A stretch of DNA of 64,000 nucleotides from Cepaea nemoralis (taxonomy: Eukaryota; Mollusca; Gastropoda; Stylommatophora; Helicidae): the NCBI GenBank assembly GCA_014155875.1, contig JACEFZ010006262.1, positions 62,001 through 126,000 on the forward strand, in the 5' to 3' direction. The translations under genes and the position numbers were made by a program. Positions 12,991-60,960 of the stretch are shown one piece after another (positions within the stretch are counted from its first letter, which is position 1; each line of letters opens with the position of its first letter). Under the pieces are notes generated by a model, which did no database searches, had not been told where the DNA came from, and saw nothing but the letters and a program-made list of their open reading frames with translations.

Positions 12991-13790
12991 CTGCTACTCG
13001 GACCTACGCAATCCATTTGGACTTATGGGAAATCCATGCGTAGAAAACAGCACCAGAAATCTCTGGGCGTGAGATGCAGCCCCTTCCTCGGCGAGTGCTT
13101 CGCTTTTGTACAATCACAAGGAATAACACCATCCTGTGCCATACATCGGGCGCTGTTACGTCAGCTATTTCTCCCCACGATGCTTGATTCAAAAGTGGAA
13201 GGTCATGATGACCATGTATAAGGTCCTTTACTGAACATCGTCTTTCATCATGTCCACCATTTCCCATCCGAAAAGATTGTTGATCTTACGACAGTTTACA
13301 ATCGTTGCGCATTTTGCTGGTATATTTGTTTTAATATCCAAGACACACAGTAGATTTCACAGTGTCTGGCATATTTGGCTGCAACTATTCAAGTCGCTGA
13401 AGTCACACAACAAGCAAATCGACGAACAATTCAAAAATATACAATACACATATTCCCACAGTATTTTAAAGTGTCTACCATATTGGTAATTTTCACCTGA
13501 ATACCAAGATGTTTTGTTTACACAACAATAGTTTGAGCGTACGAATCGCATCTGCTTCAGCATATGTTTATATTTATTACCAAATCTTAGCAGCACTAAA
13601 ACAAAAACGAAGAGAATGCAGCCAAAGACAGGTAATGATCTCTGATCATTGCTTTGATAGGGAAGAAAACAGCAGCCAGACCATTGCCAAGATAAGCAAA
13701 GAAATGGGGGTCTCAGTATCGAAGCTATGAAGCTAAGCCTTACCACTTTCTATGTTAGTTGATTTGTTAGTCATCATCATGTGCCATGCC
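12991..13790. repeat. Segmentally duplicated spacer (copy at 35690-36294)
   Basis: From about 13100 onward this stretch is clearly homologous to 35690-36294, and parts recur at 16515-16565 and 17417-17790. The left part still encodes a short LINE-like C-terminal tail (VQSQGITPSCAIHRALLRQL) matching WIDDIIEIVRSQGMTLSCATH at 35.7 kb. The similarity crosses the LINE 3' end at about 13780, so the copies arose by duplication of a larger segment. No gene is present. Confidence 0.65.
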
Positions 13791-13794
13791 GAAT

Positions 13795-14400
13795 AAGCAT
13801 GGGTGGTCATGTTTCGCCACCTCACACTATTACCAGTCGTGAAGCAGGTCTGTGTCCTTGTCTCGATTATGTCATGTGATCAAACCATCGATATATGTAT
13901 CTCTCTGCCTTCCCCTTGTTCCTTTCCCTCAATCTTTCCAACTATTACTAATTTTGTTAGTTTAGTTCCATTGATTGCTTGCCCAAATAATCTTGACTGC
14001 CAACTATTAATTTCTTTTATCTGTTTACTGTTTTCATTTGTTCTTTGTAGGACTTGCTTATTTGGTTTTCTGTCTTTCCATTATTTTCTTTGAATTTTCC
14101 TCAGACACTACATCTCCACTACCATCAGATGTTTGCCAGCTTTTCTGCTTATTGTACACAATTCATATCTTATCATTGTATACGATAATTGCATCATTTC
14201 AACACTCTTTTTCTCGTTTCAGCTGATATCTTTTGATTGGTCAGTATGTTTTTCACCAGGCATCTTCGTCGTAGCGATGCTTGATCTAAAATCCTTTATG
14301 CCCCTCCCAGGAGATATTATGGCAGTTCTGAGATATTTATACCGATATAATCTTTGAATTGACGAGATATAGTTGTATCGATTCACTCTATGAATTGATT
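13795..14400 (-). pseudogene. RTE-type LINE C-terminal fragment
   Basis: A minus-strand match to the last about 200 codons of the RTE-type ORF2, including the 3' end with a catcatcat tail on the left. It is heavily mutated. Its 3' end near 13781-13810 is the undisturbed equivalent of the site where the Gmr1-type element inserted between 36299 and 45090. Confidence 0.7.
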
Positions 14401-36294: not shown

Positions 36295-36299
36295 CCGAT
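36295..36299. repeat. Target-site duplication ccgat (left)
   Basis: This 5-bp sequence abuts the LTR and is repeated at 45090-45094. The uninterrupted paralogue near 13790-13796 (tgccgaataagca) shows the pre-insertion state. Confidence 0.85.
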
Positions 36300-38389
36300 T
36301 GTAACAAGCTACGTGGAGGGTCCCAAATAGCCCGGTCACAATGTTTAATTAATCTTCTATAGCCCTGGCTGGGATAGGTCTTTACCTGCCAACCCTCCTC
36401 CGTTTTCCCTGGACTCACTGTCACGCTTCCTTTCGACCTAGGGACCTATTTCCTGCAGTGTTCTTCTGGCTGACACATAAATAACATGGCAGTCGTCAGA
36501 ACAACTTGGAAGTAATTTTATTAACCTAATCAAGAACAGCACAGGAACACATAAAGGCAGATAAACATATAGATCTACACAGACACTACACTGGTAAAGT
36601 TTTGACAGAGAGCCTCCAGTCACCACAGCCACAGATCCAGCTTCAGATACAGTCTGATCTGTCCAGACATATCTCACCAAAGATGTCAGAATCTCCTTCT
36701 TTCTCCAGCAACTGGTTGTAGATTCAACAGGCTTTTGTAGAATCCAAGCGACTGGTGTGTTGAGGACTTCTGTTCATTGCCACATGAATTAATTCGGCAC
36801 CAGGTCTTCACTGACCTATGAAAAGCTTTACGGTTGCAGATACGGTGAGGTGTTCGTGGAGGGATAATGGATGGGTGCCTTTTAATGTCTGGTATAAAAT
36901 GGGTATGCCAGAAAATCTCTCTTAGGCTCCCTCCATACAACAACTGCTCTCAGGCGTATGTTGTTGAAAAAAACCGGCAATGCACCAGTTATGCAAAATG
37001 TCCTTGCCTCAAGACCTGCACCTTGCCTCTGTCTCAGAGTTAAGCACACCAAACCTTGAGTTGGCCTCGTCGGACATATTGGCGTTAGCCTAGAAGCACT
37101 GGTGATAATGTCCGTTAGAAGACATATTCACTTCCCATAGAAGAGGACCCTGGAGATGACAAACAAAACCTGAGCGACTGGGCTGACTCATGTATCACAC
37201 AAATACACTATAATTAATACCTGAATGACTGGGCCTGACCTGTCAGGTGGCCCCTGGATTGACCACGTCCGGGCTTGAGGAGACTTCCAGCTGGACGAAG
37301 TCCTGTTGTCTTTTTGCCCACACGACACACTCTCCACATTCATACCAAGCCTTTATTATGATTTGGCACAATCATTTCCATGCTTCCCTCTCACTTACAA
37401 ACGCTGCCTTTCTCACAACTACGATCCTGTGGTGTGGTGTGCCCAGTCATCTGTGTGTTTCCCCTCGTTACTAAAAGTATAGTATTGGGGTTGTATGGCA
37501 CGCAGTGTAGTTCCCCACTCCCAGCAAGAATAGGAAAGAGGATACTACCCCTCCCGGCCGCTGCTCTTGTCTGAGCTGTCGCCGCAAGGTACTGGTAGTG
37601 CCTCACAGAACACATAGATTTAGAGGAATGCAGGTTCTCTCAATGAGATAGAGAAGTCCATTATCTTCCCGACATCATCCTATCAAGTAACAGACGAAAG
37701 AGATAGTCCTGTGTACTAGCCTCTTCTGGCTCAAGAAGATAGATCATAGATTGGTATAGCTATCCAATGATGATATTCCACAGAAAGATGACCAGATGCC
37801 CAATTCAAGCCGTAGACAGAAAGATAGCAACAGCTCATCTGACGCCAAGAACAAATGAAATCCTCTGGGGAGATATATTGTTCCGTTTCACTTCCCCGGC
37901 TATGCCAAGAACAAGACGCCCATTTAGATTGCCAACGGTCAACCAACTCTTCATTGGTTATGATTGGCTTTTCGCCAATTCATCTTCCCCTTTGAGACAA
38001 AATACATTTATAAGTCCAGGTCTGTCTGGACCACCCACAACCCAAGTTTACCTTTCAAAATGTCTTAGTAGTAGTTGCACTTCTGTCGTTATCTTTAATT
38101 AACTTTGACAAGTTGCAACTTGCAAACGGTACTTGTTTGCCCGGCCATCAATTGACCAGTAGCCGCACCAGTGCACATTTGACGCAAGGCGCGCCTTCGG
38201 GACTACCCGAAAGGAAAGACAAATATATACTCGCTCCATGTAAAGATTGTGGTATGAAGATAACCCAAAGAACCATCTTTCATGGAGAATTGAGCGAATA
38301 AAGAACTGAGAGCTTCCGAAAGCCGGTTCCCCTTGTTTACCAAGAATAACAGAATACATAAGGACATGGGCCACTGGCGTTTCGCTACA
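36300..38389 (-). repeat. 3' LTR of the Gmr1-type element (2,090 bp)
   Basis: Begins TGTAACAAGC and ends TTTCGCTACA on the plus strand. It is nearly identical to 43001-45089; differences seen include an A-run indel near 36970 and single changes near 37214, 37260, 37755, 38070 and 38150. The LTR contains no meaningful reading frame. Confidence 0.95.
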
Positions 38390-38402
38390 TAGGCCCCCTC
38401 TT
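38390..38402 (-). other. Polypurine tract of the Gmr1-type element
   Basis: On the minus strand AAGAGGGGGCCTA directly precedes the 3' LTR, as expected for the plus-strand primer. Confidence 0.75.
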
Positions 38403-41400
38403 AAGAAAGTCGAACCCTACGACTTTCTACTGTCAGTGGTCCTGTTCGAATGACCCCACCCTCACATTCAACCATAGGATGCCGTGATAGGAAATCTGCT
38501 CCCACATTCTCCCTTCCGGGGATGTATTCGACCGTGAACTGATACGGTTGTAAGAGCAATGACCATCTCATTAACCTCGCATTCAGTTTCTTAGAAGTTG
38601 CCAAGAACGTCAGAGGTTGATGGTCGGATTGCACTTTGAACTGGACTCCATACAGATAAGGTTGAAATTTCTGTACCGCCCACACTAGAGCTAGACATTC
38701 CCGTTCGACGGTGGAGTAATTCCGTTCGGCGGGTAACAGTTTTCGACTGGCATATGCCACCGGACACAGCACCGAAGGATTATCTCGCCCTTCCTGCAAC
38801 AGAGTTGCTCCAATCCCTATGTTACTCGCGTCGGTTCTCAGAACAAACGTTTTCTCCAAATTTGGGAGTTGCAGGACTGGCCTATCCACCAACGCCTGTT
38901 TCAGCTTCCCATAAGCTTCTTCACAGCTCGGGGTCCAGACTATAAGATCTGGTGATCCTTTCTTCAGGGTCTCAGTTAACGGCGCCGCAATTTCGTTGAA
39001 CTTCGGAATGAATTTCTGGTAAAACCCACACAAAGACAAGAAAGACCTAACATCTTTTTTGGATTTAGGACGGGGTGCGAGACGGACCTTCTCAATATTC
39101 TTTTCTTCCGGTACCAGTCCCCCTGGGGTAATAGTGTGTCCCAGAAATTCCAAGGATTGATAGCCAATCATGCATTTGGCCGGACGGGCGGTTAACCCCT
39201 CCTCTTTCAATCTTATGAAGATCTTTTCCAAGGATTTCAGGTGATCTTTCAGATTGTCAGACGCGATGAGAATATCATCCATAAACGAGACAACAGAAGG
39301 ATCCCTTAAAGGGTCTAATAACTTCCTCATCATGCGTGTGAACACACTGGGCGCATTGCTCAGCCCAAAAGGCATCACCTTAAATTCGTAATGGCCGCTC
39401 GGAGTACTGAAAGCGAGCATAGGCCGAACCTCAGGCTTCACAGGGATCTGATAATATCCCCGGCTTAAATCAATTTTTGAGAAGTACTTTGCCCTATTTA
39501 ATCTGGCAAACAGTTGATTTGTGTTTGGTAACGGCTCAACTTGGAATGTCGTACAACTGTTTAAATGCCTGTAATCAATACATAAGCGGTGCTCCCCGCT
39601 TGGCTTCCTCAACAAGACAACCCCGGCATTATAAGGAGAAGTCGAAGGAGTGATGATGTCATCGTCCAGAAGCTTCTGGATTTCAGTTTCCAGGGCCTTC
39701 TCTTTCGAAAAGGGTACTGGATATATTTTCTGGCGAACTGGGTCTTGGGTAGTCAGAGTCATATCAAACTCGACCAACCCTGTCCGCCCTGGCCGATCGG
39801 TAAGAATTTGCTGATGGGACTCTAACAACCGGATGACACGGTCTGTTTCTTCAGCCGACAGATCAGGATTTATATGGACATCCCTATAGGTTTCCCCAGG
39901 GTGTAATGGATAACCCCGATCCGCGTCTTCGCCCGATTCAGTTTCCATCGCGACCGCCATAGTCATGAGTGGGAGAGAAGTACCATCGGATCGTTCCTCA
40001 TATTTTTTTAGGAGGTTAATGTGGAAGATTTTAGATTTCCCCCTGATCCGGATAGCATAGTTGGTGCGGGACACAACCCTTTCCACCGGGAACGGCCCCT
40101 GCCAACCAATCTCGAGTTTATTGGAACCTACTGGAAGTAACAACAGAACCCGATCCCCCACCTTAAGAGACCTATCTTTCGTCCTTCTATTGTAGTAGGC
40201 CGCGTGTCTCTTTCTGGCCGCCCTCATATTCTGAGCTGCCAAAGCCCAACCCGTCTGGAGTTTTTTCTTTAACTCTTCGACGTATTTATAAGAGGATACA
40301 GCTTCTTCAGAAGTTTCCTCCTCTGTCCAACATCTCATTAAGGCTTCTAAGGGACCCTTGATTGGCCTCCCGAATAGTAGAGTGGCTGGTGGCAACCCGG
40401 TCGACCCATGGGGAACCTCCCGATAGGCGAACAAGGCGGCTGAGATATACTCATCCCATCTGTCTGGTTTCTCTTGAGCCAGCTTCCGAAGCATGGTCAT
40501 CAAGGTACCATTAAACCTCTCTACTTGCCCATTAGACTGAGGGTGGTATGGGCTTGTGTGAATGTGGTTAGTCTGGAAGATACGAAAGACTTCTTCCATC
40601 AGCTTACCACAGAACTGAGACCCATTGTCCGTTAGGATCTGGTTGGGAAATCCCAACCTAGTAAAGGTCTCCATCAGTGCATCAGCCACTCGCTTAGAGT
40701 CGATTGTGGCCAAAGGTATCGCCTCGCCCCACATGGAACAGCAATCCACCATCGTGAGAATGTACTTATTCCTCTTCCTAGTCCTAGGAAGAGGACCAAC
40801 AAGATCGATGGCAACTCTCTCGAAAGGAGAGTTCATAATGGGCATGTCTCCCAGGACTACCGGAGCTGTCCAGTGTTTTGGTGCCACACGCTGGCACTCT
40901 GGGCACGACTTGACGTACCTACGCACGTCTCCAGTCATCCCTGGCCAGTAGTAATGGCAGGAAATGCGCTGGAGAGTTGCCCCGACACCCATATGTCCAC
41001 TGAAAGAAATGGTGTGTCCCATATGAAGAAGCTGTTCCCGATAAGCCTTAGGAACTACCAGCTGTCCATGCTGGCGATCCTCCACTCCGGCTCTCCGGTA
41101 CAGTAACCGATTCTTCATATAATACTGACCCCGTCTTGGTGGGTCAGAACTTTTTGGCAACTGGTTGAAGCAAGGTTGCAAAGTAGCATCCTGGCTTTGA
41201 GCAGCTCGTAACTCCCCAGGCAAAGGATTCACGATCAAGGCCGGCGTCTGCTCATCCTCCGATTGAGATCTGGTTTGCATTGCCCCTACGTACATGGGTT
41301 CGGTTGGAATCCCTAGAAAGACGTAGCGACAACCCAAGATCATTGGGAAGATAGGATCTAGCAGAACGGCTGCCTGTATAGTGCCGGTAACATATTTTGA

Positions 41401-41433
41401 TTTGATGTCTACCTTCGCAATTGGAAGAGACAT
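38401..41433 (-). CDS. pol: Gmr1-type Pol: integrase, reverse transcriptase, RNase H
   Basis: An open frame of 1,010 codons. In order: the end of the protease (to about residue 40); an integrase with an HHCC zinc finger (H140, H147, C177, C180) and catalytic D210, D269 and E305 with canonical 35-residue spacing; a basic C-terminal integrase domain to about 480; reverse transcriptase with D655 and FMDD (D719, D720); RNase H with D868, E910, D937 and an ADFLSR end (D980). Integrase preceding RT is opposite to ordinary Ty3/Gypsy elements although the sequence motifs are Gypsy-like. The listed ATG is internal: the frame is open upstream to about 41478 and would join the protease if one base were skipped. 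All catalytic residues are present. Confidence 0.9.
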   Translation of the reverse strand: MSLPIAKVDIKSKYVTGTIQAAVLLDPIFPMILGCRYVFLGIPTEPMYVGAMQTRSQSEDEQTPALIVNPLPGELRAAQSQDATLQPCFNQLPKSSDPPRRGQYYMKNRLLYRRAGVEDRQHGQLVVPKAYREQLLHMGHTISFSGHMGVGATLQRISCHYYWPGMTGDVRRYVKSCPECQRVAPKHWTAPVVLGDMPIMNSPFERVAIDLVGPLPRTRKRNKYILTMVDCCSMWGEAIPLATIDSKRVADALMETFTRLGFPNQILTDNGSQFCGKLMEEVFRIFQTNHIHTSPYHPQSNGQVERFNGTLMTMLRKLAQEKPDRWDEYISAALFAYREVPHGSTGLPPATLLFGRPIKGPLEALMRCWTEEETSEEAVSSYKYVEELKKKLQTGWALAAQNMRAARKRHAAYYNRRTKDRSLKVGDRVLLLLPVGSNKLEIGWQGPFPVERVVSRTNYAIRIRGKSKIFHINLLKKYEERSDGTSLPLMTMAVAMETESGEDADRGYPLHPGETYRDVHINPDLSAEETDRVIRLLESHQQILTDRPGRTGLVEFDMTLTTQDPVRQKIYPVPFSKEKALETEIQKLLDDDIITPSTSPYNAGVVLLRKPSGEHRLCIDYRHLNSCTTFQVEPLPNTNQLFARLNRAKYFSKIDLSRGYYQIPVKPEVRPMLAFSTPSGHYEFKVMPFGLSNAPSVFTRMMRKLLDPLRDPSVVSFMDDILIASDNLKDHLKSLEKIFIRLKEEGLTARPAKCMIGYQSLEFLGHTITPGGLVPEEKNIEKVRLAPRPKSKKDVRSFLSLCGFYQKFIPKFNEIAAPLTETLKKGSPDLIVWTPSCEEAYGKLKQALVDRPVLQLPNLEKTFVLRTDASNIGIGATLLQEGRDNPSVLCPVAYASRKLLPAERNYSTVERECLALVWAVQKFQPYLYGVQFKVQSDHQPLTFLATSKKLNARLMRWSLLLQPYQFTVEYIPGRENVGADFLSRHPMVECEGGVIRTGPLTVESRRVRLS

Positions 41434-41464
41434 CGCTACCGCACTCTTTGTCGCCGTTTGAATC

Positions 41465-42796
41465 TCAATAGATTCTCCGGTTAGCTGCTCCTGGACTCAC
41501 TAAGTGTGATGAAATTACAGCCTCAAACTGCAGACCGGTGTCGTAGAGACACTCAACTGGTTGACCGTTCACAAGTACCGTTTCTACTACTGGTGGTTTT
41601 TCTAAATCTTTGTTCCCAAGATCCCTCCCTTCTACCTCCTTGTGAGACCCTTCCCCGGTTTCTACAAGACAAGCAGCATAGTGAGAGTCTTTCTGTTTAC
41701 GCCGGCAATCAACCGTATTGTGTGTGGGAGATTTGCAATAGGCGCACCACTTTTCACTCCACTTTCTTTTAGGAGATCCAGGTGGACTCTTACCAGAGGG
41801 TTTCTTACTAGGAACTTTATCGAAAGGATCCTCCTTCTTGGTGTGAGCTGTTTTAGGGTTCTTCTTCTTTCCAGACCATGTGTCTGGTGGTCGGGGATTG
41901 GGTTGTGACAATTCCCCATTATCTCCATGAGCTAGCACATACCTTTCCGCTAATGTATTTACCAAGTCTAACTTTTCTGCCCCATTTTCAAGCAAGAAGG
42001 TTTGCAATGGCTTAGGCATCATCCTCTTCATTTGGTCCACGACCACCAATTCTTCCAAACTTTCATAGTCGTTAGCAAATCCAGCTAATGACATCCACTT
42101 CAAAAGGTAAGACTTCAGTCTGACACTGTAGGCTGCGAACATCTCTCCTGGCTCTCTCTTCGACTTTCTGAACTGTTGTCGATAAGTATGAGCTGTCATC
42201 TGGAACCTTTTCAATAGTGCTTTCTCCAGAGCTTCATAGTCATTCTCCATACCAGGTGGCAACCTAGAATAGACCTCGTACGCGGTCCCCCTCAGGCCCT
42301 GTGAGAGTTTCAAGTTCCATTTCCCTCGTTCCAATCCCATAGCCAAAGCCATCGACCGAAATCTGTGAAGATACTGGTCGATCTTATCTTTGTGTTCATC
42401 GAACGGGAGCAATGGGAACTTCATTGCCTGGTATGGACCGCCACCAGAAGTTGTTGAGTCAGGGAGAACTGTGTCTCCCACTGCACCGTCTCTTTCCTTG
42501 GCAGTTTGAGCTTTCAGCTCCAACTCTCTCATACGGAACTCATGGTCTCTGACTGCCTGCTCGGCCTCCATCTTCCTAGCCTCAGCCTCCATCCTCTTAA
42601 CTTCAGCCTCCGCCTCAATCCTCTTGGCTTCGCGCACAGCCTGTCTGTAGTCTCTTTCCACCTCCTGCACATATTTCTGTAACTCCGCTCCATCATAACC
42701 CATTTCACGCCCTGTAGCCTGTACGTCAGCGACATTAAACCCAGCTGATGCCATCCTAAACTCAGAGGGTAAGGGAAGAGGTAATTGTCTATTCAC
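41465..42796 (-). CDS. gag: Gmr1-type Gag with protease active site
   Basis: 443 codons starting about 180 bp inside the primer-binding site. Residues 46-105 are a charged coiled-coil-like helix rich in Glu and Arg. About 120-290 form the capsid-like region; vertebrate SCAN domains are thought to derive from the capsid of a Gmr1-like element. A basic Pro/Lys-rich linker leads to one CCHC knuckle (C351, C354, H359, C364). The protease active site DTG is at 419-421. The frame stops at 41465, about 20 codons after the DTG, whereas the related element at 48-51 kb continues in one frame through this region. One extra base near 41480 would explain the difference. Confidence 0.85.
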   Translation of the reverse strand: MNRQLPLPLPSEFRMASAGFNVADVQATGREMGYDGAELQKYVQEVERDYRQAVREAKRIEAEAEVKRMEAEARKMEAEQAVRDHEFRMRELELKAQTAKERDGAVGDTVLPDSTTSGGGPYQAMKFPLLPFDEHKDKIDQYLHRFRSMALAMGLERGKWNLKLSQGLRGTAYEVYSRLPPGMENDYEALEKALLKRFQMTAHTYRQQFRKSKREPGEMFAAYSVRLKSYLLKWMSLAGFANDYESLEELVVVDQMKRMMPKPLQTFLLENGAEKLDLVNTLAERYVLAHGDNGELSQPNPRPPDTWSGKKKNPKTAHTKKEDPFDKVPSKKPSGKSPPGSPKRKWSEKWCAYCKSPTHNTVDCRRKQKDSHYAACLVETGEGSHKEVEGRDLGNKDLEKPPVVETVLVNGQPVECLYDTGLQFEAVISSHLVSPGAANRRIY

Positions 42797-42976
42797 CTGC
42801 CCTCACAAATACACAACAAGTTACATTACACGACCACAACACGTCGTATGTCGGTCAGTCTGTGTCAGGAAGAGTATAGACAATAGCCAGGCACGGTAGG
42901 CAGAACCTATTGATAGAAAACAAGGATATCTGTCCCCTATCACTAAATCAGCCAGAACTCCACCAGGATTTCAAAT

Positions 42977-42995
42977 ATCCCGGGACGAGCCCCCA
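42977..42995 (-). other. Primer-binding site, tRNA-Pro-like
   Basis: Inside the 5' LTR by 5 bp, the minus strand reads TGGGGGCTCGTCCCGGGAT, complementary to the 3' end of proline tRNA except for one additional base in the CCCGG stretch. The adjacent tcaaat continues the resemblance into the T-loop. Confidence 0.75.
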
Positions 42996-43000
42996 GAAAT

Positions 43001-45089
43001 TGTAACAAGCTACGTGGAGGGTCCCAAATAGCCCGGTCACAATGTTTAATTAATCTTCTATAGCCCTGGCTGGGATAGGTCTTTACCTGCCAACCCTCCT
43101 CCGTTTTCCCTGGACTCACTGTCACGCTTCCTTTCGACCTAGGGACCTATTTCCTGCAGTGTTCTTCTGGCTGACACATAAATAACATGGCAGTCGTCAG
43201 AACAACTTGGAAGTAATTTTATTAACCTAATCAAGAACAGCACAGGAACACATAAAGGCAGATAAACATATAGATCTACACAGACACTACACTGGTAAAG
43301 TTTTGACAGAGAGCCTCCAGTCACCACAGCCACAGATCCAGCTTCAGATACAGTCTGATCTGTCCAGACATATCTCACCAAAGATGTCAGAATCTCCTTC
43401 TTTCTCCAGCAACTGGTTGTAGATTCAACAGGCTTTTGTAGAATCCAAGCGACTGGTGTGTTGAGGACTTCTGTTCATTGCCACATGAATTAATTCGGCA
43501 CCAGGTCTTCACTGACCTATGAAAAGCTTTACGGTTGCAGATACGGTGAGGTGTTCGTGGAGGGATAATGGATGGGTGCCTTTTAATGTCTGGTATAAAA
43601 TGGGTATGCCAGAAAATCTCTCTTAGGCTCCCTCCATACAACAACTGCTCTCAGGCGTATGTTGTTGAAAAGACCGGCAATGCACCAGTTATGCAAAATG
43701 TCCTTGCCTCAAGACCTGCACCTTGCCTCTGTCTCAGAGTTAAGCACACCAAACCTTGAGTTGGCCTCGTCGGACATATTGGCGTTAGCCTAGAAGCACT
43801 GGTGATAATGTCCGTTAGAAGACATATTCACTTCCCATAGAAGAGGACCCTGGAGATGACAAACAAAACCTGAGCGACTGGGCTGACTCATGTATCACAC
43901 AAATACACTATATTTAATACCTGAATGACTGGGCCTGACCTGTCAGGTGGCCCCTGGATTGGCCACGTCCGGGCTTGAGGAGACTTCCAGCTGGACGAAG
44001 TCCTGTTGTCTTTTTGCCCACACGACACACTCTCCACATTCATACCAAGCCTTTATTATGATTTGGCACAATCATTTCCATGCTTCCCTCTCACTTACAA
44101 ACGCTGCCTTTCTCACAACTACGATCCTGTGGTGTGGTGTGCCCAGTCATCTGTGTGTTTCCCCTCGTTACTAAAAGTATAGTATTGGGGTTGTATGGCA
44201 CGCAGTGTAGTTCCCCACTCCCAGCAAGAATAGGAAAGAGGATACTACCCCTCCCGGCCGCTGCTCTTGTCTGAGCTGTCGCCGCAAGGTACTGGTAGTG
44301 CCTCACAGAACACATAGATTTAGAGGAATGCAGGTTCTCTCAATGAGATAGAGAAGTCCATTATCTTCCCGACATCATCCTATCAAGTAACAGACGAAAG
44401 AGATAGTCCTGTGTACTAGCCTCTTCTGGCTCAAGAAGATAGATCATAGATTACTATAGCTATCCAATGATGATATTCCACAGAAAGATGACCAGATGCC
44501 CAATTCAAGCCGTAGACAGAAAGATAGCAACAGCTCATCTGACGCCAAGAACAAATGAAATCCTCTGGGGAGATATATTGTTCCGTTTCACTTCCCCGGC
44601 TATGCCAAGAACAAGACGCCCATTTAGATTGCCAACGGTCAACCAACTCTTCATTGGTTATGATTGGCTTTTCGCCAATTCATCTTCCCCTTTGAGACAA
44701 AATACATTTATAAGTCCAGGTCTGTCTGGACCACCCACAACCCAAGTTTACCTTTCAAAATGTCTTAGTTGTAGTTGCACTTCTGTCGTTATCTTTAATT
44801 AACTTTGACAAGTTGCAACTTGCAAACGGTACTTGTTTGCCCGGCCATCAATTAACCAGTAGCCGCACCAGTGCACATTTGACGCAAGGCGCGCCTTCGG
44901 GACTACCCGAAAGGAAAGACAAATATATACTCGCTCCATGTAAAGATTGTGGTATGAAGATAACCCAAAGAACCATCTTTCATGGAGAATTGAGCGAATA
45001 AAGAACTGAGAGCTTCCGAAAGCCGGTTCCCCTTGTTTACCAAGAATAACAGAATACATAAGGACATGGGCCACTGGCGTTTCGCTACA
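43001..45089 (-). repeat. 5' LTR of the Gmr1-type element (2,089 bp)
   Basis: Nearly identical partner of 36300-38389, one base shorter. It should contain the promoter for gag-pol, but I could not place a TATA box with confidence. Confidence 0.95.
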
Positions 45090-45094
45090 CCGAT
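45090..45094. repeat. Target-site duplication ccgat (right)
   Basis: Exact repeat of 36295-36299. Confidence 0.85.
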
Positions 45095-47912: not shown

Positions 47913-50900
47913 TTATTTTCCTCCTGAGTCCGTATGGTCATTGTCTTCATCCTCAGCAGTAGGGTGTCTGCTCAGGAAATCTGCTCCCACATTTTCTTTT
48001 CCGGGGATGTACTCCACATTGAATGTGTATGGTTGTAGGAGCAGTGACCATCTCATCAACCGAGTGTTTAACTTCTTGGAGGCAGCTAAGAACATCAGAG
48101 GTTGGTGGTCACTCTGAACCATGAATTTTGTTCCATATAAGTATGGTTGGAATTTCTGTACCGCCCATACTAGAGATAAACATTCCTTTTCGATGGTGGA
48201 ATAGTTCCGTTCAGCCTGGTTTAACTTTCGACTGGCGTATGCTACTGGGAAAAGGATGGTCGGGTTTTCTCGTCCTCCCTGCAACAGTGTTGCCCCAATG
48301 CCAACATTACTGGCATCCGTTCGCAAGGTAAATGTTTTGGTAAGATCTGGGAGTTGCAAGATGGGTCTTGCTGAAAGTCTGTCTTTAAGGATGGTGTACG
48401 CAGTCTCACAATCTGCAGTCCAGTTAACTTTCTCTGGGGCTCCCTTCTTTGTGGCATCTGTGAGAGGGGCTGCAACCATGTTGAAATTCTGGATATATTT
48501 TTGTAGAACCCACACAGAGACACAAAGGATTTTACATCTTTCTTGGTCTTGGGTCGCGGTGCGGCTTGTAGTTTTTCTACATTTTTCGGGTCAGGCGAGG
48601 TGTAACCCTGGACTATGGTATGTCCCAGAAATTCAAGTTTTTGAAATGCTAGCTGGCACTTGGTGGGCCGAGCCGTCAATCCTACTTCAGCTAATCTGGT
48701 TAACAGAACTTCCAATGAGGATAAATGTTCCTCAAAGGTATTGGAGGCAATGAGAATGTCGTCCATGAAGTTGGTAATGGATGGGTCTCTTAGAGGGTCC
48801 AAAAGCATTCTCATCATCCTGGTGAAAACGCTGGGTGCGTTACTAAGGCCAAATGGGAGCACGTTGAATTGGTAGTGTCCCATTGAGGTGCTGAATGCCA
48901 GGTAGGGTCGAACTTCTTGCTTCACGGGGATCTGGAAGTATCCTTTGCTCAAGACTATCTTAGAGAAATACTTGGCTTTACTCAGCTTGGCGAAGAGTTG
49001 CCCATGGTCTGGTAGCGGTTCTGCTTGGAACTCGGTTATACCATTCAGTTGGCGATAGTCGATGCAGAGCCGATGCTCCCCACTAGGTTTTCTAAGCAGC
49101 ACCACATTTGCACTGTACGGTGACTCAGAAGGTGAGATTATTCCTTCTTGAAGTAGCTGGTTGATCTCAATTCTGAGTGCCTCTTCCTTTGCATAGGGAA
49201 TGGGATACTGTTTCTGCCTAATAGGATCAGGGCTGGTCAGCTTCATATCAAATTCTATCAAGCTAGTGCGACCTGGTTTGTCGGTGAGGAGTGTTGCGTG
49301 AGATTGTAATACTTCCTCCAATTTTCCCTTTTGGGAAGTGGTCAGGTTAGGATTTATTTCCACATCCTGGTAGGTCTCCTGAAGTTGTAGGGGGTATTCC
49401 ACCGCTATGTTCTCCCCATTCTCTACTTCAGTTGCAACTGCCATTGCCAACAAATGCCTTGGGGATTCATTTGCTCTCACATAATATTTGCGAAGCAAAT
49501 TGATATGATACATTTTCTGCTTACCCTTGATGGCGATCCTGTAATTGGTACGGGACAGTTTCTCTACCACGGGGAACGGCCCCTGCCACCCAATCTCCAA
49601 CTTATTGTTTCCGCTAGGGAGTAGAAGTAAGACTTTGTCCCCTACCTCTAATGAACGATCCTTGGCCTTTTTATTGTAATACTGGGCATGTTTCGCTCGG
49701 GCTCTTCTAAGATTACTCGTCGCTAACTTCCATCCCATCTTCAACTTGTGTTTCAATTCTTCCACATACGTGGACGCATTTACTACTGTCTCGTCTGTTC
49801 TCTCCTCAGTCCATGTTCTCATGAGAGCTTCTAGAGGACCTTTGATGGGCCTACCAAAGAGGAGGGTTGCCGGCGGAAGGCCAGTGGAGCCATGAGGAAC
49901 TTCCCGGTAAGCAAATAGTGCTGCAGGTAGGTAATCATCCCAGACTTCTGGTTTTTCCTGTGCCAACTTCCTCAGGATAGACATCAATGTCCCGTTAAAC
50001 CTTTCCACCAGGCCGTTTGACTGTGGGTGGTATGGACTGGAATGTATGTGGCGAGTCTGGAAAATATGGAAGACTTCTTCCATCAATCTCCCTCTAAACT
50101 GAGAGCCGTTATCAGTGAGGATTTGGTTAGGGAATCCTAGCCGAGTGAAAATCGTGACCAGGGCCTCTGCCACTCTTTTAGAATCAATGGCTGGCAGGGC
50201 GATCGCTTCTCCCCACATGGAGCAGGTATCCACCAGAGTTAATATGTATTTGTTTCTCCTTTTAGTTCTAGGGAGAGGTCCAACAATGTCGACAGCCACT
50301 CGCTCGAAGGGGGTATTCATGATGGGCATTTCTCCTAACTTAACTGGGGCAGTCGTGTGTCTGGGTGCAACTCGCTGACACTCAGGACAAGATTTCACAT
50401 ACCTTTTGATGTCCCCATTCATTCCCGGCCAAAAATAATGACATGAAATGCGTTGATTAGTTGCACCACCACCCATATGCCCACTAAACGACAGTGTGTG
50501 GCCCATGTGTAGAACTTGTGGCCTATATGCTGCTGGTACTACAAGTTGACCATGTTCCTGTTCATTTTTACCGGCCCTACGATACAACAAATTTCCCTTC
50601 TTATAAAAGTCCCCTCTCTGCGGGGGGTTTCTAGCATTTGGAAGTTTCTTAAAACAGTGTGCTAGAGTCGGGTCCTGGTTCTGTGCAGCTCTAATCTCCC
50701 CTGGGAGTGGATTCAGGGGTAGATCAGGCTCAGAGGTTGCTGTAACTTGAGCCCTTGTCTGCACAGCAGCCACTATCATGGGGGTGACGGGTTCCCCCAA
50801 GTAGACATATCTACATCCTAGTATCATGTCATAGATGGAGTCAGCCATCACTGCTGCCGATATCGTACCCTTAACGAATTTAGAGTCAACTAATATTCTA

Positions 50901-51475
50901 GCGATCGGCAAGATCAGGGTAGATGAGCTTTTTGTCACGCCCTTTATTTCAATTGTGTCTTCGGTGATTTGATCAGGGTCTACCAGGTGAGATGCTACGA
51001 TGGCATCATATTGTAAACCCGTATCGTAAAGACACTCGACCCACTGTCCATTGACAGTGATCTGCTCTGTCACTGGAGGTCTTCTCCGTTCTTGAGGTGG
51101 CCTCTTAGCGATTTCCTTGTCTGTGGACAAGTATGCCGCAATCTTGGGATTAGGTTGGCGCCTACATTCTGACGTACTGTGGGAGTTATTCCTACAGTTC
51201 TTGCAGTAGGGTTGTCTAAAACCAGTTGCGGTGGGGTTGTTTGGTTGTGGCTGGGGTTGCCTCTTATCTGCTGGTTGGTTATTGTATCGGGGTTGTCCCA
51301 TGTTGGTTGGAGGTTGGTTCTTTTGAGGTTGGGGAGGTTGGTTCTTTTGAGGTTGGGGAGGTTGTGTTGAGACAGAGTCCCCATGGGCAGTCAGATACCT
51401 TTCAGCCAAGACTATCATTTCCTCTAGGTTTTGCGCCCCTTGTTCAACGATGAAAGTTTCCATCGGCTTCGACAT
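47913..51475 (-). pseudogene. pol: Second Gmr1-type Gag-Pol, damaged
   Basis: One frame (51475-48242) covers a gag remnant with a CCHC knuckle (C91, C94, H99, C104), a continuous protease (DTG at 151-153), integrase (HHCC; AVDIVGPL, LTDNGSQF, VERFNGT) and reverse transcriptase. RNase H and the end follow in another frame (48515-47913). The order is again protease, integrase, RT, RNase H. Three defects are visible. A one-base loss near 48505 separates RT from RNase H. The first RT catalytic Asp is Val in the SKIVLSKGY motif near 48950. Everything upstream of mid-gag, including the 5' LTR and primer site, is gone. Protein similarity to the first element is high, but they are clearly different lineages. 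Confidence 0.88.
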
Positions 51476-51479
51476 TCAC

Positions 51480-53990
51480 TATTTCCTGGTTGTTTATGAT
51501 AATATATATATCTTTAAGTAAGCAGAGTTTCAGATCGCCAGCCCGATTCACTTGACAGCCTTTTGGCTCCGCAGTAGTGCGCCTGGTCTGGTCGGGGGCC
51601 GGGTGATCCACACAACAAAAAAAAACCTCACATTAATCACTTTAAATGTGGGCCCGGTGGACCACTGTGGGCAATAGCTCACAGTGGGACTAAGGGTCCA
51701 CGCCAAAAACAGGGGAGGCGGGGAACCAGCTCGTCTGGGATGACTGCCAAACCCTAAATAAAAAAAATAAAAAAAAAATAATATTGGTTCAAATTTTTGT
51801 CCTGCCAGTGCCATCATTACTAAGGTTGGTCAGGAGAGCATTGATGGAATTGAACAATTAGTGGGAGGGTAGCGCGGGAAACAAAAATGTAAAGATTTCC
51901 CTTTCTCTTAGTCACCCCCTTTGAATCATGTGTGTGAGGGTTGAATGAATGAATAAATACAAAAACACATATGGTTATCAAACCAATAATACTGTAAAAA
52001 CTTATGCAAATACAAATGTTTGGTTAATTTTTATTTAAAAAAAAAAAAGAAAGAGAGAGCAAAGAGGGAAATATGAATAAACCCCTACATTTAGGGAAAA
52101 AAAAACAAGGAGGAAAATATAACCCACTCCTTTACTCCAAGTATTATTAAAACTGCAGTTTGCATGTGTATGTACCTGCTAGGCTATGTTAACACCATTC
52201 CAAAGAAAATCATCCTAGCAAATGGAATCACATATTGTAAAAATGTTTATCATTTTCATAACTATTATCACCATTGCTGTTTTTTTTTGCTGTCATTACC
52301 CCCAGTATGTCTCTTCTTGTCATTATTACTATTGCCATCATTAGTAATAAAACAAAAACCCCTTTCCCATGTGCCCCCCTCCCCTCGCCCATGGTTGTTG
52401 TTGCCTTTGCTGGTACCCACACCTGTTTGGTTCAAATATTTATCCTGCCTTTACCATCATTGCCCAGAGAGGGGGGTAATGGCATTGGTGGAGTGGAACC
52501 AAATTGGTGAGAGGGTGGCAAGGGAAACAAAATGTAAAGATTGTAAAAATTTGTGCTAATATTGCTGCTTGTTTACTTTCTACAATAAGTTTAAAAAAAA
52601 AAAAAGAGGAAGGGAAAAAATGAATAAACCCTTACAAATAAGACCAAAAGAAAAAAAAAAAATAAACAAGGAGAAAAAGATAACCAACTCCTTTTACTTC
52701 TGCTATTATTGAACATTGCATGTTGCAAGTATATGTAAAAATAAAAAAAATAAGCAAGGAGAAAAAAAAAAGATAACCAACTCCTTTTTACACCTACTAT
52801 ATTATTAAACAGGGCAGGATGCAATTGTTATTGTATGCACCAGCCATATTTTAACACTATTTCTAAGAAAATCATTTTAGCAAATGGAATCACATGTTTG
52901 GAAAATGTGATCATTATCAAAACAAATCCTACCATTGTGTTTATTAATAGCTATTAGCATTGCTGTCATCACCCTTAGTAGTTTTTTATTCCTTGTCATT
53001 ATTATTATAAGATGTATTTCATGTAAACACCATTCCTAAGGTAATCAATTTAACACATAAAATCACATGTTAAAACTATTATTTATTATCATTGAGTCTA
53101 TCACTAGTCTCAGCACTGTTATTGATATTCCTTGTCACTATGATATTTATTTATGTATTTGGTTGTTACTTTGCATTATTATCATGTAATCACTATTAAT
53201 ATATATGGCTTTGAAAACGCGTATACTATCACATCCCACTTTCCCACCCTTTTGATACTGTGATTGTTGTCTCTGCTGCCACCCTCACCGTTTTGTTTCA
53301 GTTCTGCACCGCCATGTTTATCATCACCGAGGGTGATGGTACTTGGTAGGAGTTTTTGGAGCTGACAGGAGAGCGGGGAGGCAGGGGAAATAATAACAGC
53401 CCGCTACCATCACGCTTTTGATTTAAAATATTTCCTTACAACAATGTCAATGGAGAAATGTTTAAATGTATAAAATATTTGTAATTTTTGCGCATATGTC
53501 ACCTACACGCCCACATGCAACGCTCTGTAAAAACACGCACACAAATACTGAACACACAGTACGCATGTAACAACACAAACAATACAAATGCAACAACTAC
53601 CCCTCCTGCATTGTAAACTAGGATACTCCTTGACAACCCCCCCTTCCCCCCCCCCACCTTCTCGATACTGTTGGTTTTGATGCTGCTGCTGCCTTCACCG
53701 GTCGGTTCTAACAAGTTTTACTGCCAAGTGGTGATTATGGTATTGGTGGGGTTGGAGCTGACAGGTGAAAGGGCGGCAGAGGGAAAATAACGGTATACTA
53801 CCGTCTTGTTGTGGTTTGTACTCGTTTTTCGTTACCCCCCATTTCAAATGTAAAAAGGTTGAAACAAATGTTGTAAAAATTTGCGCATATGTCACCTACA
53901 CTTCCACATGCAACGCTCTGTAACAACACGAACAATACAAATGCAAATGGTTCTTAACACTCAATAAAAGTTTAAAAAAAAAAAAAAATA
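51480..53990 (+). mobile_element. Keno-like Tx1 LINE, internally deleted (copy A)
   Basis: From 51552 this copy matches the 5' UTR of copy C (cagtagtgcgcctggtctgg motif, through the ccaaaaacaggggaggcggg motif to about 51755). It then jumps through an A-rich joint straight into the 3' UTR shared with copy B, ending in aataaaag, poly-A and taagatca. ORF1 and ORF2 are wholly absent. Immediately before the 5' UTR the sequence gccttttggct equals U2 snRNA positions just upstream of TAAGATCA, so both junctions point to a U2 target. Confidence 0.7.
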
Positions 53991-53995
53991 AGATC

Positions 53996-56900
53996 AGGGT
54001 CAGGGTCAACGTAGGGTCAGGGACAGCCATTCTCCAAATTTCCGACACGTGGACTATTTTTAGAACACACACAGACGCACAATGTAGAATTTCCACAGTT
54101 CAAGTTATAAACACCACACACTCATTTGTCATTGTGAACATACACGCACCACCTAACTACAATTATCAACCTCTATTTTATGAAAATTTAGACGACTTAC
54201 TAACACAGACATACAGGGGACAAAATATTGTTCTTGCCGGCGATTACAATTGTGTACTTGAAGATTTAGACGTGGTAGGTGGGGAGGTGGGAAAACAGCT
54301 GAGGAGAGCCGGCAGGGACAGCTTACATCAACTTGACACACTACGAAATATAATCGATACACACAACCTCACAGACGCATTCAGGCATACACACCCCGAC
54401 AGTAGAGAAACGACATACACAAACAAAACACACAACAGATCATCTAGATTAGACCGGATTTACACACCCGCAACACATCACATCATACAAACCAAACACC
54501 TACGGGAAACATTAGATTACACAGACCACAAAGCAATACTAGTACACATCAGCACAAACACGCACCCAAACAAAAGGTCACCTCACTGGAAGTTCAATAA
54601 TTTATTATTGGAACACACAGAATATGTAAAATATATGACACAGCTCATACACACGTACACAGACAATATACCGACTGAGAACATCACACAATACTGGGAC
54701 TTATTGAAAAACACCATACGAAGCAGAACACAACATCTAGCAACCATGATCCACAAAGACAGACTAAGACAGGAGCGCATCATACAGACAGCCATACGAC
54801 TAACAAAACAAACAGACAGAGATGCACATCACTTACACACATTAGAAGCACAACTAGAAGAACACCAACAACACAGATATCTGGGTGCTCTTCTCAGAAC
54901 AAAACTCAACACAATTACACAAGAGTCAGCTACGAGGCAATATTTAGCAATAGAACAGAACGTACAACGTAACAGACAAATAAGCAAAATATCAGACATG
55001 CAAGGAAACATGCAGACAGAAACACCACACATAGAGACTGCTTTCCAACAACACTACACACAACTATTCACAGCAGAGACAGTCGACACACAGATACAAG
55101 ACAACTTCTTACAGTACACAAAGAAATTATCTGACACAGACAAAGACACACTGGACACAGAACTGACACTGACAGACATAACAAAGGCACTAAGCACACT
55201 AAACAAAGACAAAACTCCAGGACCAGACGGTTTGACAGTAGAATTCTACCAACACTTCTTTCCTATTCTAGGCAATCTTCTCCTCAAAGTCTATCAGGAA
55301 GCCTTTGACAAAAAAAATCTTCCGGACAGCTGCAACATGTCTTACATTACACTCATATGCAAGGATAAAACTGACAAAACACAACTGAAGAACTACAGAC
55401 CAATTTCCTTACTCAACACAGACTACAAGATACTCGCCAAATCACTCACCAACAAACTTAAACCTTTCATGCCAACACTAATACACCCAGACCAACAGTG
55501 CAGTGTCAAAGACAGAAATATACACAAACACACACACCTCATTAGGGACATTATTAACTACACACATGGAAAAGACTGTCCATCCTCCATCTTATCCTTG
55601 GATCAAGAGAAGGCCTTCGACAGAATTTCCCACACTTACCTACATAGGACACTAGAACACTGTAACATAGGAGAGTACTACAGGCAGTGGATACAGATCT
55701 TGTACAAAAATCCTGAGAGCAGAGTGTTGGTGAACCATTCACTGACAGCTAGCTTCAGGCTCACGAGATCTGTAAGACAAGGATGTCCCTTATCACCACT
55801 CCTGTATGTGCTCACTCTAGAACCTTTATTAGAGAAGATAAGGCAAGACACTAGTATTAAAGGAACCTTCCTGCATGGGATAGGAGAGCAGAAGCTCATC
55901 GCCTATGCAGATGACACTGCCTTCTTTCCCACCAGCAACACATCAATAAGGAATATACTCCACACCTTTACCCATTTTGGAAAAGGCAGTGGAGCCAAAA
56001 TTAATGTACAGAAATCACAGATAATGGGCCTGGGAAAGTGGAAACAAAAGGCTGATTTCCCTCCAGATCTGAAACACATAGACACCATGAAGCTGTATGG
56101 GATCACATTTCCATGCGATCCCACAGAAACACACAGACAGACATGGCACGCACTTACCGAACAGATCACAGACATGTTACACAGGTATAGGTACAAGACA
56201 TCCACAATATTTGGTAGAAGCACAATAGTCAACACATACATATTACCCAAAATAATATATTTAGCGACAGTACTGGACCCTCCTAAACAGACCGTCACAA
56301 ACATAAACAAACAAATCAGACGCTTCATCTTCACCAACACGATACACAGCATTAAACACAAAACTCTCATACAAGACAGGAAACAAGGCGGGATTTCACT
56401 ACAGGACATCCAGACAAAAATACTGTCACTTAGAATCAGTCACATAGGTAAAATCATCAGACACCCAGAACAGAACAGACTAGCACTATACTACATAGGC
56501 CACAACATCAAACATCTCACACCTCTTAACAATGCAACTGCACACTACCAGGGAAGACTGCCAACATTCTATCAGACATGCATACAGGCAATAAAAGGAC
56601 ATGAACAGTTAATACAGCAAACAACACACACAATATACAAACATTTAGTTAGAGAACAAGCACCATCACTAAGACTTAGGATTAAAAGAGGACACAAATA
56701 CTTCATGACTGACTTCACATGCACCTTTTCAAACCTACACAACAAACACATAACACCAAAAGCTAGGGAGATCACATATAGACTGTTATACAGTATGACC
56801 CCCACAACACAGGTAGAAGCATACATATCCAAACAATGTCAATTATGTAGAAACAACACACAAGAGACAGAGGAACACATTTATTATACATGTCCAACAA

Positions 56901-57166
56901 TTACTGCCACACGCGCAACACTCAAACACCTCATACAAACACACACAGGCAAACAAACCGACATATATAAAGCAATTTTTCTCAATACTATACCAATGAC
57001 ATCTAAGGACATACATACAAAACTACTTGTAGCACTTTCTTACTACAGACAACTTATATGGACCTGCAGAAATTTTGCCAGATACAAACACCACACATAT
57101 AACACACATTTAGTTTCCTTTATGTACACGCACACAATATCACAACCATTTCCAGAGTTGGTATAA
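53996..57166 (+). CDS. Tx1-clade LINE ORF2, 5'-truncated (EN, RT, zinc knuckle)
   Basis: An open frame of about 1,056 codons. It lacks only the first part of the endonuclease, and the in-frame ATG at 54134 is not the native start. Counting from that ATG: endonuclease GDYN at 36-39, SRLDRIY (D107) and TDH (131-132); RT with the KTPGPDG, LKNYRPISLLN and DQEKAFDRISH blocks, RQGCPLSPLLY and YADD at 591-594; and a C-terminal CCHC-type knuckle (C902, C905, H915, C920). The knuckle, the L1-like RT and the U2 junctions together point to the sequence-specific Tx1 group. Composition is rich in ACA codons and differs from neighbouring elements. No stop or frameshift is seen. Confidence 0.85.
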   Translation, partial: RVRVNVGSGTAILQISDTWTIFRTHTDAQCRISTVQVINTTHSFVIVNIHAPPNYNYQPLFYENLDDLLTQTYRGQNIVLAGDYNCVLEDLDVVGGEVGKQLRRAGRDSLHQLDTLRNIIDTHNLTDAFRHTHPDSRETTYTNKTHNRSSRLDRIYTPATHHIIQTKHLRETLDYTDHKAILVHISTNTHPNKRSPHWKFNNLLLEHTEYVKYMTQLIHTYTDNIPTENITQYWDLLKNTIRSRTQHLATMIHKDRLRQERIIQTAIRLTKQTDRDAHHLHTLEAQLEEHQQHRYLGALLRTKLNTITQESATRQYLAIEQNVQRNRQISKISDMQGNMQTETPHIETAFQQHYTQLFTAETVDTQIQDNFLQYTKKLSDTDKDTLDTELTLTDITKALSTLNKDKTPGPDGLTVEFYQHFFPILGNLLLKVYQEAFDKKNLPDSCNMSYITLICKDKTDKTQLKNYRPISLLNTDYKILAKSLTNKLKPFMPTLIHPDQQCSVKDRNIHKHTHLIRDIINYTHGKDCPSSILSLDQEKAFDRISHTYLHRTLEHCNIGEYYRQWIQILYKNPESRVLVNHSLTASFRLTRSVRQGCPLSPLLYVLTLEPLLEKIRQDTSIKGTFLHGIGEQKLIAYADDTAFFPTSNTSIRNILHTFTHFGKGSGAKINVQKSQIMGLGKWKQKADFPPDLKHIDTMKLYGITFPCDPTETHRQTWHALTEQITDMLHRYRYKTSTIFGRSTIVNTYILPKIIYLATVLDPPKQTVTNINKQIRRFIFTNTIHSIKHKTLIQDRKQGGISLQDIQTKILSLRISHIGKIIRHPEQNRLALYYIGHNIKHLTPLNNATAHYQGRLPTFYQTCIQAIKGHEQLIQQTTHTIYKHLVREQAPSLRLRIKRGHKYFMTDFTCTFSNLHNKHITPKAREITYRLLYSMTPTTQVEAYISKQCQLCRNNTQETEEHIYYTCPTITATRATLKHLIQTHTGKQTDIYKAIFLNTIPMTSKDIHTKLLVALSYYRQLIWTCRNFARYKHHTYNTHLVSFMYTHTISQPFPELV

Positions 57167-60640: not shown

Positions 60641-60960
60641 AGATCAAGTGTATTTGCTGGCCCCCGACAGTAGTGCGCTTGGTCTGGTCGGAGGCCGGGA
60701 TGATCATTCTCGGTCCCTTGGCTAAGATCAGACGCATTTGCTGCCCCCCCCCCCCCCCCAGTAGTGCGCCTGGTCTGGTCGGGGGCCGGGTGATCCAAAA
60801 AGAAAAAAAACCTCACATAAGCATCACTTTAAATGTGGGCCTGGTGGACCACTGTGGGCAATAGCTCACAGTGGGACTAAGGGTCCACGCCAAAAACAGG
60901 GGAGGCGGGGAACCAGCTAGTCTGGGATGACCGCCAAACCCCCCCCCCCCCCCCCCCCCC
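60641..60960 (+). promoter_or_regulatory. 5' UTR of Keno-like copy C with repeated U2/promoter units
   Basis: Two units of about 85-100 bp lie in tandem, each made of a U2-like aagatca block, a C-rich spacer, cagtagtgcgc and ggtctggtcgg motifs and a GC palindrome (gggggccggg). The second unit (about 60708-60795) has a longer U2 match with ctcgg, cttggctaagatca. The leader then follows copy A up to the ccaaaccc motif and a 24-base poly-C run. It is likely the internal promoter region of the LINE. Confidence 0.6.

What the first reader, a model, noticed from the sequence alone, without database searches (positions are those of the whole stretch)
38401..42796. LTR retrotransposon with Gypsy-like proteins but integrase before reverse transcriptase (Gmr1 order)
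Seen: in one 1,010-codon frame the HHCC finger and D,D35E integrase (residues 140-305) precede RT (FMDD at 718-720) and RNase H (D868 to D980). Protease is upstream, at the end of the gag frame. Known: Ty3/Gypsy elements normally place integrase last; the reversed order defines the Gmr1-like group, first recognised in deuterostomes. Inference: this is a young, nearly complete member. If the host is a mollusc, it extends the range of the group.
Basis: partly seen in the sequence, partly recalled or inferred. Interest (0 to 1): 0.88.

Follow-up and report, generated by a model that had tools for sequence, protein, structure and literature searches.

The report
Snail Gmr1-type LTR retrotransposon, integrase first
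This is a recently inserted jumping gene of a known but unusual group (Gmr1-like), in which the enzyme that pastes the DNA into the genome is encoded before the enzyme that copies it; the host is probably a snail, and relatives with the same order are found in other molluscs and in echinoderms.

Summary
On the minus strand lies an 8.79-kb LTR retrotransposon: LTRs 36300-38389 and 43001-45089 (99.6% identical), a 5-bp target duplication, and an empty site in a paralogous repeat near 13.79 kb. In one 1,010-codon frame a Ty3/gypsy-type integrase precedes reverse transcriptase and RNase H. In RT and integrase trees it lies, with 100% bootstrap, on the side of one branch that holds all integrase-first rows tested; nothing points to Ty1/copia. 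A second, older copy (47.9-51.5 kb) has the same order. Gag has a SCAN-like capsid, a mark published for vertebrate Gmr1-like elements. It is a new family of the known Gmr1-like kind. Corrections: the protease is split between the gag and pol frames, while the 84%-identical relative and copy 2 read through it in one frame, so this copy is probably defective. A mollusc host does not take the group to a new branch: crustacean and annelid members are in print, and mollusc members sit unclassified in databases. The host is probably a heterobranch, perhaps land, snail. Mildly new: integrase-first order and SCAN-type capsid occur together in molluscs, echinoderms and a hemichordate, although a mollusc survey lists no Gmr1 clade.

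The parts
43001..45089 (-). 5' LTR (2,089 bp), ends TGTA...TACA
   Evidence: blastn against the other LTR, 2,084/2,092 identical with 1 gap; ends read
36300..38389 (-). 3' LTR (2,090 bp)
45090..45094 (.). target site duplication, 5 bp, right side
   Evidence: CCGAT on both sides of the element
36295..36299 (.). target site duplication, 5 bp, left side
13780..13800 (.). paralogous empty site: the repeat into which the element jumped exists here without it
   Evidence: joined flanks align through the junction in a piece of 86% identity
42977..42995 (-). putative primer binding site, 5 bases inside the 5' LTR; resembles the 3' end of animal tRNA-Pro (recalled, not tested)
   Evidence: position and sequence
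41465..42754 (-). gag, from its first ATG (429 aa; the open frame starts at 42796)
   Evidence: alignment of the P0003 gag starts at 42754
41915..42430 (-). two-lobed capsid region of Gag (Gag residues 109-280)
   Evidence: AlphaFold2 model, mean pLDDT 75.1 overall and 79-96 per block of ten over residues 111-280; matches to Arc, PNMA2, Ty3 and retroviral capsids
41924..42187 (-). SCAN-like capsid C-terminal domain
   Evidence: PF02023 E 9.3e-7, 29.0 bits against a cut-off of 27
41705..41746 (-). CCHC zinc knuckle (nucleocapsid)
   Evidence: C-x2-C-x4-H-x4-C read; columns C337, C340, H345, C350 invariant or nearly so in 20 rows
41317..41590 (-). aspartic protease, split: the DTG half is in the gag frame, the second half in the pol frame
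   Evidence: three-frame translation; continuous in P0001 and in copy 2
38401..41433 (-). pol open frame: end of protease, integrase, RT, RNase H
40879..41055 (-). integrase H2C2 zinc finger
   Evidence: PF17921 1.7e-20
40540..40830 (-). integrase catalytic core (D,D35E)
   Evidence: PF00665 4.2e-13
40000..40128 (-). integrase C-terminal domain
   Evidence: PF22938 8.1e-4 and PF24626 2.5e-3, both under cut-off; Ty3 integrase aligns over query residues 10-370 of 376, this part included
39130..39609 (-). reverse transcriptase
   Evidence: PF00078 1.9e-33; Ty3 RT-RNase H 1e-83
38542..38937 (-). RNase H
   Evidence: PF17917 2.1e-38, PF17919 3.5e-36
38390..38400 (-). purine-rich tract between the pol stop codon and the 3' LTR; no room for an env gene
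   Evidence: sequence; 11 bases between pol and LTR
47946..51475 (-). second, older Gmr1-type copy: end of gag, protease, integrase, RT in one frame, RNase H in another; no LTRs found

Best explanation
A recently inserted member of a new family of the Gmr1-like group of Ty3/gypsy (Metaviridae) LTR retrotransposons, in the genome of a gastropod, most likely a heterobranch and perhaps a land snail. Expected life cycle (inferred from the anatomy and from what is known of Ty3-like elements): RNA from the LTR makes Gag and Gag-Pol; Gag assembles a particle through its SCAN-like capsid; a tRNA primes cDNA synthesis next to the 5' LTR; the purine tract primes the second strand; a Ty3-type integrase inserts the copy with a 5-bp target duplication. 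The integrase lies between protease and RT instead of after RNase H. The integrase-first elements examined form one group in both RT and integrase trees, so the order most likely reflects one old rearrangement inside Ty3/gypsy, inherited as a block, not an exchange with Ty1/copia. Shown: anatomy, order, grouping, insertion site. Inferred: life cycle and single origin. This copy's protease is split between frames, so it probably moved before that lesion arose or with helper proteins from an intact relative.
For: LTRs 2,084/2,092 identical, TSD, empty site. Domain order. RT and integrase both match Ty3 best among solved structures, 1e-83 and 2.9e-28. The order IN-RT-RH is seen in 220 of 229 homologues listed (111 of 120 in list 1, 109 of 109 new in list 2); the 9 others are 7 without a detected integrase, 1 RT-RH-IN, 1 RH-RT. 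Careful trees: integrase-first rows are one side of a branch, RT-RNase H 31 v 28 rows, 100/99; integrase 29 v 26 rows, 100/95; all of 200 bootstrap trees in each. Gag SCAN hit in the window and in 22 of 25 integrase-first relatives against 0 of 9 integrase-last gag pieces. Coding constraint: 230/160/520 differences at codon positions 1/2/3 over 815 codons between the two window copies. Nearest named rows in the trees are from Biomphalaria; a LINE in the window best matches Bradybaena similaris, 66%.
Against: The Gmr1 type element of cod and any vertebrate member could not be put in the trees, as no such sequence was to hand; membership rests on order, SCAN-type Gag and the shared clade. The integrase-first protein rows were found with integrase-first queries and chosen by hand. 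P0002 and P0022 were labelled integrase-last in the RT tree although no integrase was detected in them. The trees are not rooted, and many integrase-last rows have long branches. LTRs of 2.09 kb are longer than the 337-518 bp given for fish Gmr elements (PMC11117352, table passage). PMC11011659 reports that its metaviral capsid models detect no human SCAN proteins (passage), so the SCAN-capsid link is remote.
Confidence: 0.93

Rival explanations
1. Ordinary Ty3/gypsy element whose order looks reversed through an assembly error, or through a circular (one-LTR circle or tandem) copy read from another start point.
For: Contigs that look permuted exist: L032, L033 and L038, 3 of 43 loci, show RH-IN-RT.
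Against: In those contigs RNase H comes before integrase; here it follows RT, with LTR, putative primer site and purine tract at the right ends. The order recurs in copy 2 and in 220 of 229 listed database proteins from many species.
Confidence: 0.02
2. Gypsy-copia chimera: the order was gained by recombination with a Ty1/copia element that gave the integrase.
For: Ty1/copia elements have the same order (stated in PMC6238403, passage).
Against: The integrase carries the H2C2 finger and matches Ty3 and foamy virus integrase; no copia RT (RVT_2) or copia integrase family was hit. In the integrase tree the group lies beside Ty3/gypsy rows, but no Ty1/copia integrase was in that tree.
Confidence: 0.03
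3. The frame change in the protease is a programmed ribosomal frameshift of this family, not a lesion, so the copy is fully functional.
For: Both frames are otherwise open: gag 443 codons, pol 1,010 codons. Frameshifts between gag and pol are common in LTR elements (recalled).
Against: It falls inside the protease. P0001 (84% identical over RT-RNase H) and copy 2 run through the same stretch in one frame, and P0003 has gag and pol in one frame.
Confidence: 0.15

Closest known systems
Gmr1-like Ty3/gypsy group (Goodwin and Poulter 2002, seen only as a citation; described in passages of PMC6238403, PMC8220671, PMC3587641)
   Same: Ty3/gypsy proteins with integrase upstream of RT; SCAN-type capsid reported for vertebrate members
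   Different: A separate family; this copy has a split protease; gastropod rather than deuterostome, crustacean or annelid host
Gmr elements of tetraodontiform fish (PMC11117352, passages)
   Same: Same group name, no env, young copies reported
   Different: Consensus 6.1-6.5 kb with 337-518 bp LTRs and gag-pol of 1,506-1,634 aa, against 8.79 kb with 2.09-kb LTRs and two frames here
Unnamed database protein P0001 (ENA contig of 17,770 bases; 84% identical over RT-RNase H)
   Same: Same family or a sister family; same order
   Different: Protease in one frame; source organism not given
Biomphalaria proteins P0011, P0015, P0016 (57-60% identical)
   Same: Same clade (P0011, P0016 in the RT tree, P0016 in the integrase tree), same order
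   Different: No SCAN listed for them; P0011 and P0015 have no rve core listed, and P0015 lacks most of the core in the alignment
Ty3 of yeast
   Same: Closest solved RT-RNase H and integrase
   Different: Integrase after RNase H

Membership tests
Gmr1-like group | Integrase upstream of RT in pol | tested here: met
   copy 2
Gmr1-like group | RT and integrase of Ty3/gypsy type, not Ty1/copia | tested here: met
   Pfam families, Ty3 best among solved structures; no Ty1/copia rows in the trees
Gmr1-like group | Same group as other integrase-first elements in RT and integrase trees | tested here: met
   One side of a branch, 100/99 and 100/95 support, all of 200 bootstrap trees; trees unrooted
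Gmr1-like group | Clade with the type element Gmr1 of Atlantic cod | not testable with these tools
   No vertebrate member was among the 229 listed homologues by name; Emerson and Thomas 2011 and Goodwin and Poulter 2002 are not held
Gmr1-like group | SCAN-type capsid in Gag (published for vertebrate members: PMC4592553, PMC3424704, PMC4131045 passages) | tested here: met
   PF02023 9.3e-7, above cut-off; only weak matches to SCAN structures, by sequence E 0.21 and by fold Foldseek E 0.11
LTR retrotransposon (autonomous) | Two LTRs, TSD, primer site, purine tract | tested here: met
   LTRs and TSD shown; primer site and purine tract read by eye, the matching tRNA was not tested
LTR retrotransposon (autonomous) | All coding domains intact in this copy | tested here: not met
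   Protease split between frames
Ty1/copia | Copia-type RT (RVT_2) and copia-type integrase | tested here: not met
   RVT_1 and Integrase_H2C2 hit instead
Errantivirus or retrovirus | env gene after pol | tested here: not met
   11 bases between pol stop and 3' LTR

The most novel reading that the evidence does not exclude
Integrase-first order and SCAN-type capsid form one package that arose once in a Ty3/gypsy ancestor before the main bilaterian branches split, and has been passed on largely within animal lineages since. The SCAN domain of vertebrate transcription factors would then descend from a capsid type far older and wider than vertebrates, still carried by mollusc and echinoderm elements.
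Probability: 0.5. Interest if true: 0.5.

Novelty: new member of a known kind. Interest (0 to 1): 0.3.

Why it matters
It is a clean, recent example of the Ty3/gypsy group that changed the order of its enzymes, in a phylum where a large survey lists no such clade (PMC6238403, passages). The trees give a testable claim that the order arose once, and the Gag results tie that order, outside vertebrates too, to the capsid type from which the SCAN domain of vertebrate zinc-finger proteins is thought to come. For the window itself it is an ordinary young transposon insertion.

Tried and rejected
Ty1/copia origin, assembly error and circular permutation were considered and set aside. dN/dS between the two window copies could not be given: no usable dS came out of the first method (returned as -1) and the second method failed, so only codon-position counts are used. 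No LTRs were found around copy 2 by a loose blastn of 45.1-48.0 kb against 51.3-56.0 kb; one 16-base match, E 0.37. Rfam at gathering scores gave 0 hits and ARAGORN (bacterial code) 0 tRNAs in the window. One viral-contig scan gave 1 locus and one genome-contig scan 42 loci, the latter filed under bacteria and probably eukaryotic contamination (the inference is mine). Of these 43 loci: 28 RT-RH-IN, 1 RT-IN, 1 RT-IN-RH, 1 IN-RT-RH (L002), 3 RH-IN-RT, 9 without detected integrase; 24 of the 28 and L002 went into the trees. The protein rows of the trees were 31 chosen by hand of 229; P0011, P0097, P0002 and P0022 are not in the integrase tree because no integrase stretch of the required length was found in them. 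No SCAN chain is among the 50 rows shown of the second structural look, which says nothing for or against the fold. The window's own genome was not searched: the one attempt failed on wrong coordinates and was not repeated. Ty3's GenBank record is not in the collections. A last paper search was rejected for a slash in a term and not repeated.
Full report
What is there. On the minus strand, 36300-45089 is an LTR retrotransposon of 8,790 bases with both LTRs. The LTRs (43001-45089 and 36300-38389) match at 2,084 of 2,092 aligned positions with one gap. They begin TGTA and end TACA, and the element is flanked by a 5-bp duplication, CCGAT. The flanks belong to a repeat that also stands at 13.1-14.3 kb without the element; the joined flanks align through the junction, in a piece of 86% identity, so the insertion site is seen directly. 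With the mutation rate quoted in PMC8220671 (1.3e-8 per base and year, passage), 7 substitutions in about 2,090 bases would mean on the order of 0.1 million years. That rate is one used for another animal, so this is a rough guide only.

Coding parts. Internal DNA is 4,611 bases, with a 204-base leader before the open gag frame and 11 bases between the pol stop and the 3' LTR, so there is no env after pol. Pol (38401-41433, 1,010 codons) carries, in order, the end of the protease, the integrase zinc finger (127-185), integrase core (202-298), integrase C-terminal domain (436-478, two Pfam hits under cut-off), RT (609-768) and RNase H (833-964). Against solved structures the RT-RNase H part matches Ty3 best (1e-83), and so does the integrase part (2.9e-28 over query residues 10-370), followed by foamy virus integrase. 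No Ty1/copia RT or integrase family was hit.

Protease. In fact the DTG half lies in the gag frame and the other half in the pol frame. In P0001, 84% identical over RT-RNase H, and in copy 2 the same stretch is in one frame; P0003 has gag, protease and pol in one frame. The simplest reading is a lesion in this copy (or a base-calling error); a programmed frameshift is less likely.

Second copy. 47946-51475 holds the end of gag, protease, integrase and RT in one frame and RNase H in another, at 67% protein identity to the first over pol. Over 815 aligned codons the two copies differ at 230, 160 and 520 first, second and third positions: both descend from lineages in which this reordered frame was kept under selection. 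Two families with the same order in one window also speak against an assembly error.

Relatives. Of 229 distinct proteins listed by two searches, 220 have IN-RT-RH, 7 have no detected integrase, 1 is RT-RH-IN and 1 RH-RT. The lists are the best 120 of each search, hold near-copies and were made with integrase-first queries. Named sources include Biomphalaria, Littorina, Batillaria, Babylonia, Nucella, Crassostrea, Pecten, Pinctada, Penaeus, Patiria, Holothuria, sea urchins, Antedon, Amphiura and the hemichordate Glandiceps, besides a few plants and an alga without this order. As a set not chosen by order, though found with RT patterns from an alignment in which four of six rows are integrase-first, 43 contigs were fetched: 28 have RT-RH-IN, 1 IN-RT-RH, 3 RH-IN-RT (probably permuted), 1 RT-IN, 1 RT-IN-RH, 9 no integrase found.

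Trees. In careful trees the integrase-first rows are one side of a branch: RT-RNase H, 31 against 28 rows, support 100/99; integrase, 29 against 26 rows, 100/95; both in all of 200 bootstrap trees. The window element sits with P0001, copy 2, P0003 and P0020, then Biomphalaria. Among 21 named gastropod, bivalve and echinoderm rows, host class needs 3 changes on the RT tree against a least possible 2 and a shuffled mean of 10.3. Gastropods are one side of a branch (94/83), bivalves and echinoderms are not; Pinctada falls with echinoderm rows. That fits old, mostly lineage-bound descent but does not prove it. The trees are unrooted and lack vertebrate Gmr1 and Ty1/copia rows.

SCAN and order go together. 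PF02023 is found in 22 of 25 integrase-first relatives chosen by hand (E up to 0.001), in L002 at 4.9e-4 but below cut-off, and in 0 of 9 integrase-last gag pieces at E up to 0.1; the nine were chosen by hand as loci with a readable stretch upstream of RT. The database's own Pfam labels show SCAN in proteins named from Littorina, Crassostrea, Pecten, Patiria, Holothuria, Antedon and Glandiceps, and not in those named from Biomphalaria. Published passages derive SCAN from Gmr1-like gag and call the SCAN protein family vertebrate-specific (PMC3424704; PMC4592553), and find SCAN in over 50% of frog Gmr elements (PMC4131045). Against a close link, PMC11011659 reports that its metaviral capsid models detect no human SCAN proteins (passage). 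I found no statement on SCAN in mollusc or echinoderm elements in the held library (searches; listings and a few passages only).

Host. The LINE at 54134-57166 has as best hit a protein of Bradybaena similaris, 66% identical, a stylommatophoran land snail; of the other 119 listed hits none carries the name of a mollusc. With the placement next to Biomphalaria, also a heterobranch, this points to a heterobranch gastropod, perhaps a land snail. The genome itself was not searched.

Verdict. The claimed extension of range is weak: crustaceans and an annelid are in print (PMC3587641, PMC8220671, passages), PMC8556966 names Gmr1 among five clades present in several phyla, though its own annelid analysis did not find one (passages), and mollusc members are already in databases, though the mollusc survey (PMC6238403, passages) names no Gmr1 clade.

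Noticed in passing
window 54134-57166 (+): Long LINE frame with endonuclease and RT domains (1,010 codons); best named relative is from the land snail Bradybaena similaris, 66%.
   Followed up: partly
window 52121-53996 and 58763-60646: Direct repeat of about 1.9 kb at 87% identity on both sides of the LINE frame, with further matching pieces at 51569-52022 and 58512-60941 in a different order.
   Followed up: no
window 20411-21755: 1.3 kb of AGG-rich, strand-asymmetric tandem sequence, which also gives a 366-codon open frame without any Pfam hit.
   Followed up: no
window 24773-25668: Four tandem copies of a 226-bp unit, 99% alike.
   Followed up: no
window 2535-4727 (-), 9465-11456 (-), 5094-6290 (+): Three further frames with RVT_1 hits and no integrase hit, probably non-LTR elements.
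   Followed up: no
L002 1-5441: A contig filed under a bacterium (Candidatus Thiodubiliella) carries an integrase-first element with a weak SCAN hit, so it is probably DNA of an animal host.
   Followed up: partly
L032, L033, L038: Contigs with RH-IN-RT order, as expected from circular or tandem copies of an ordinary gypsy element; a picture of what a false integrase-first call could look like.
   Followed up: partly
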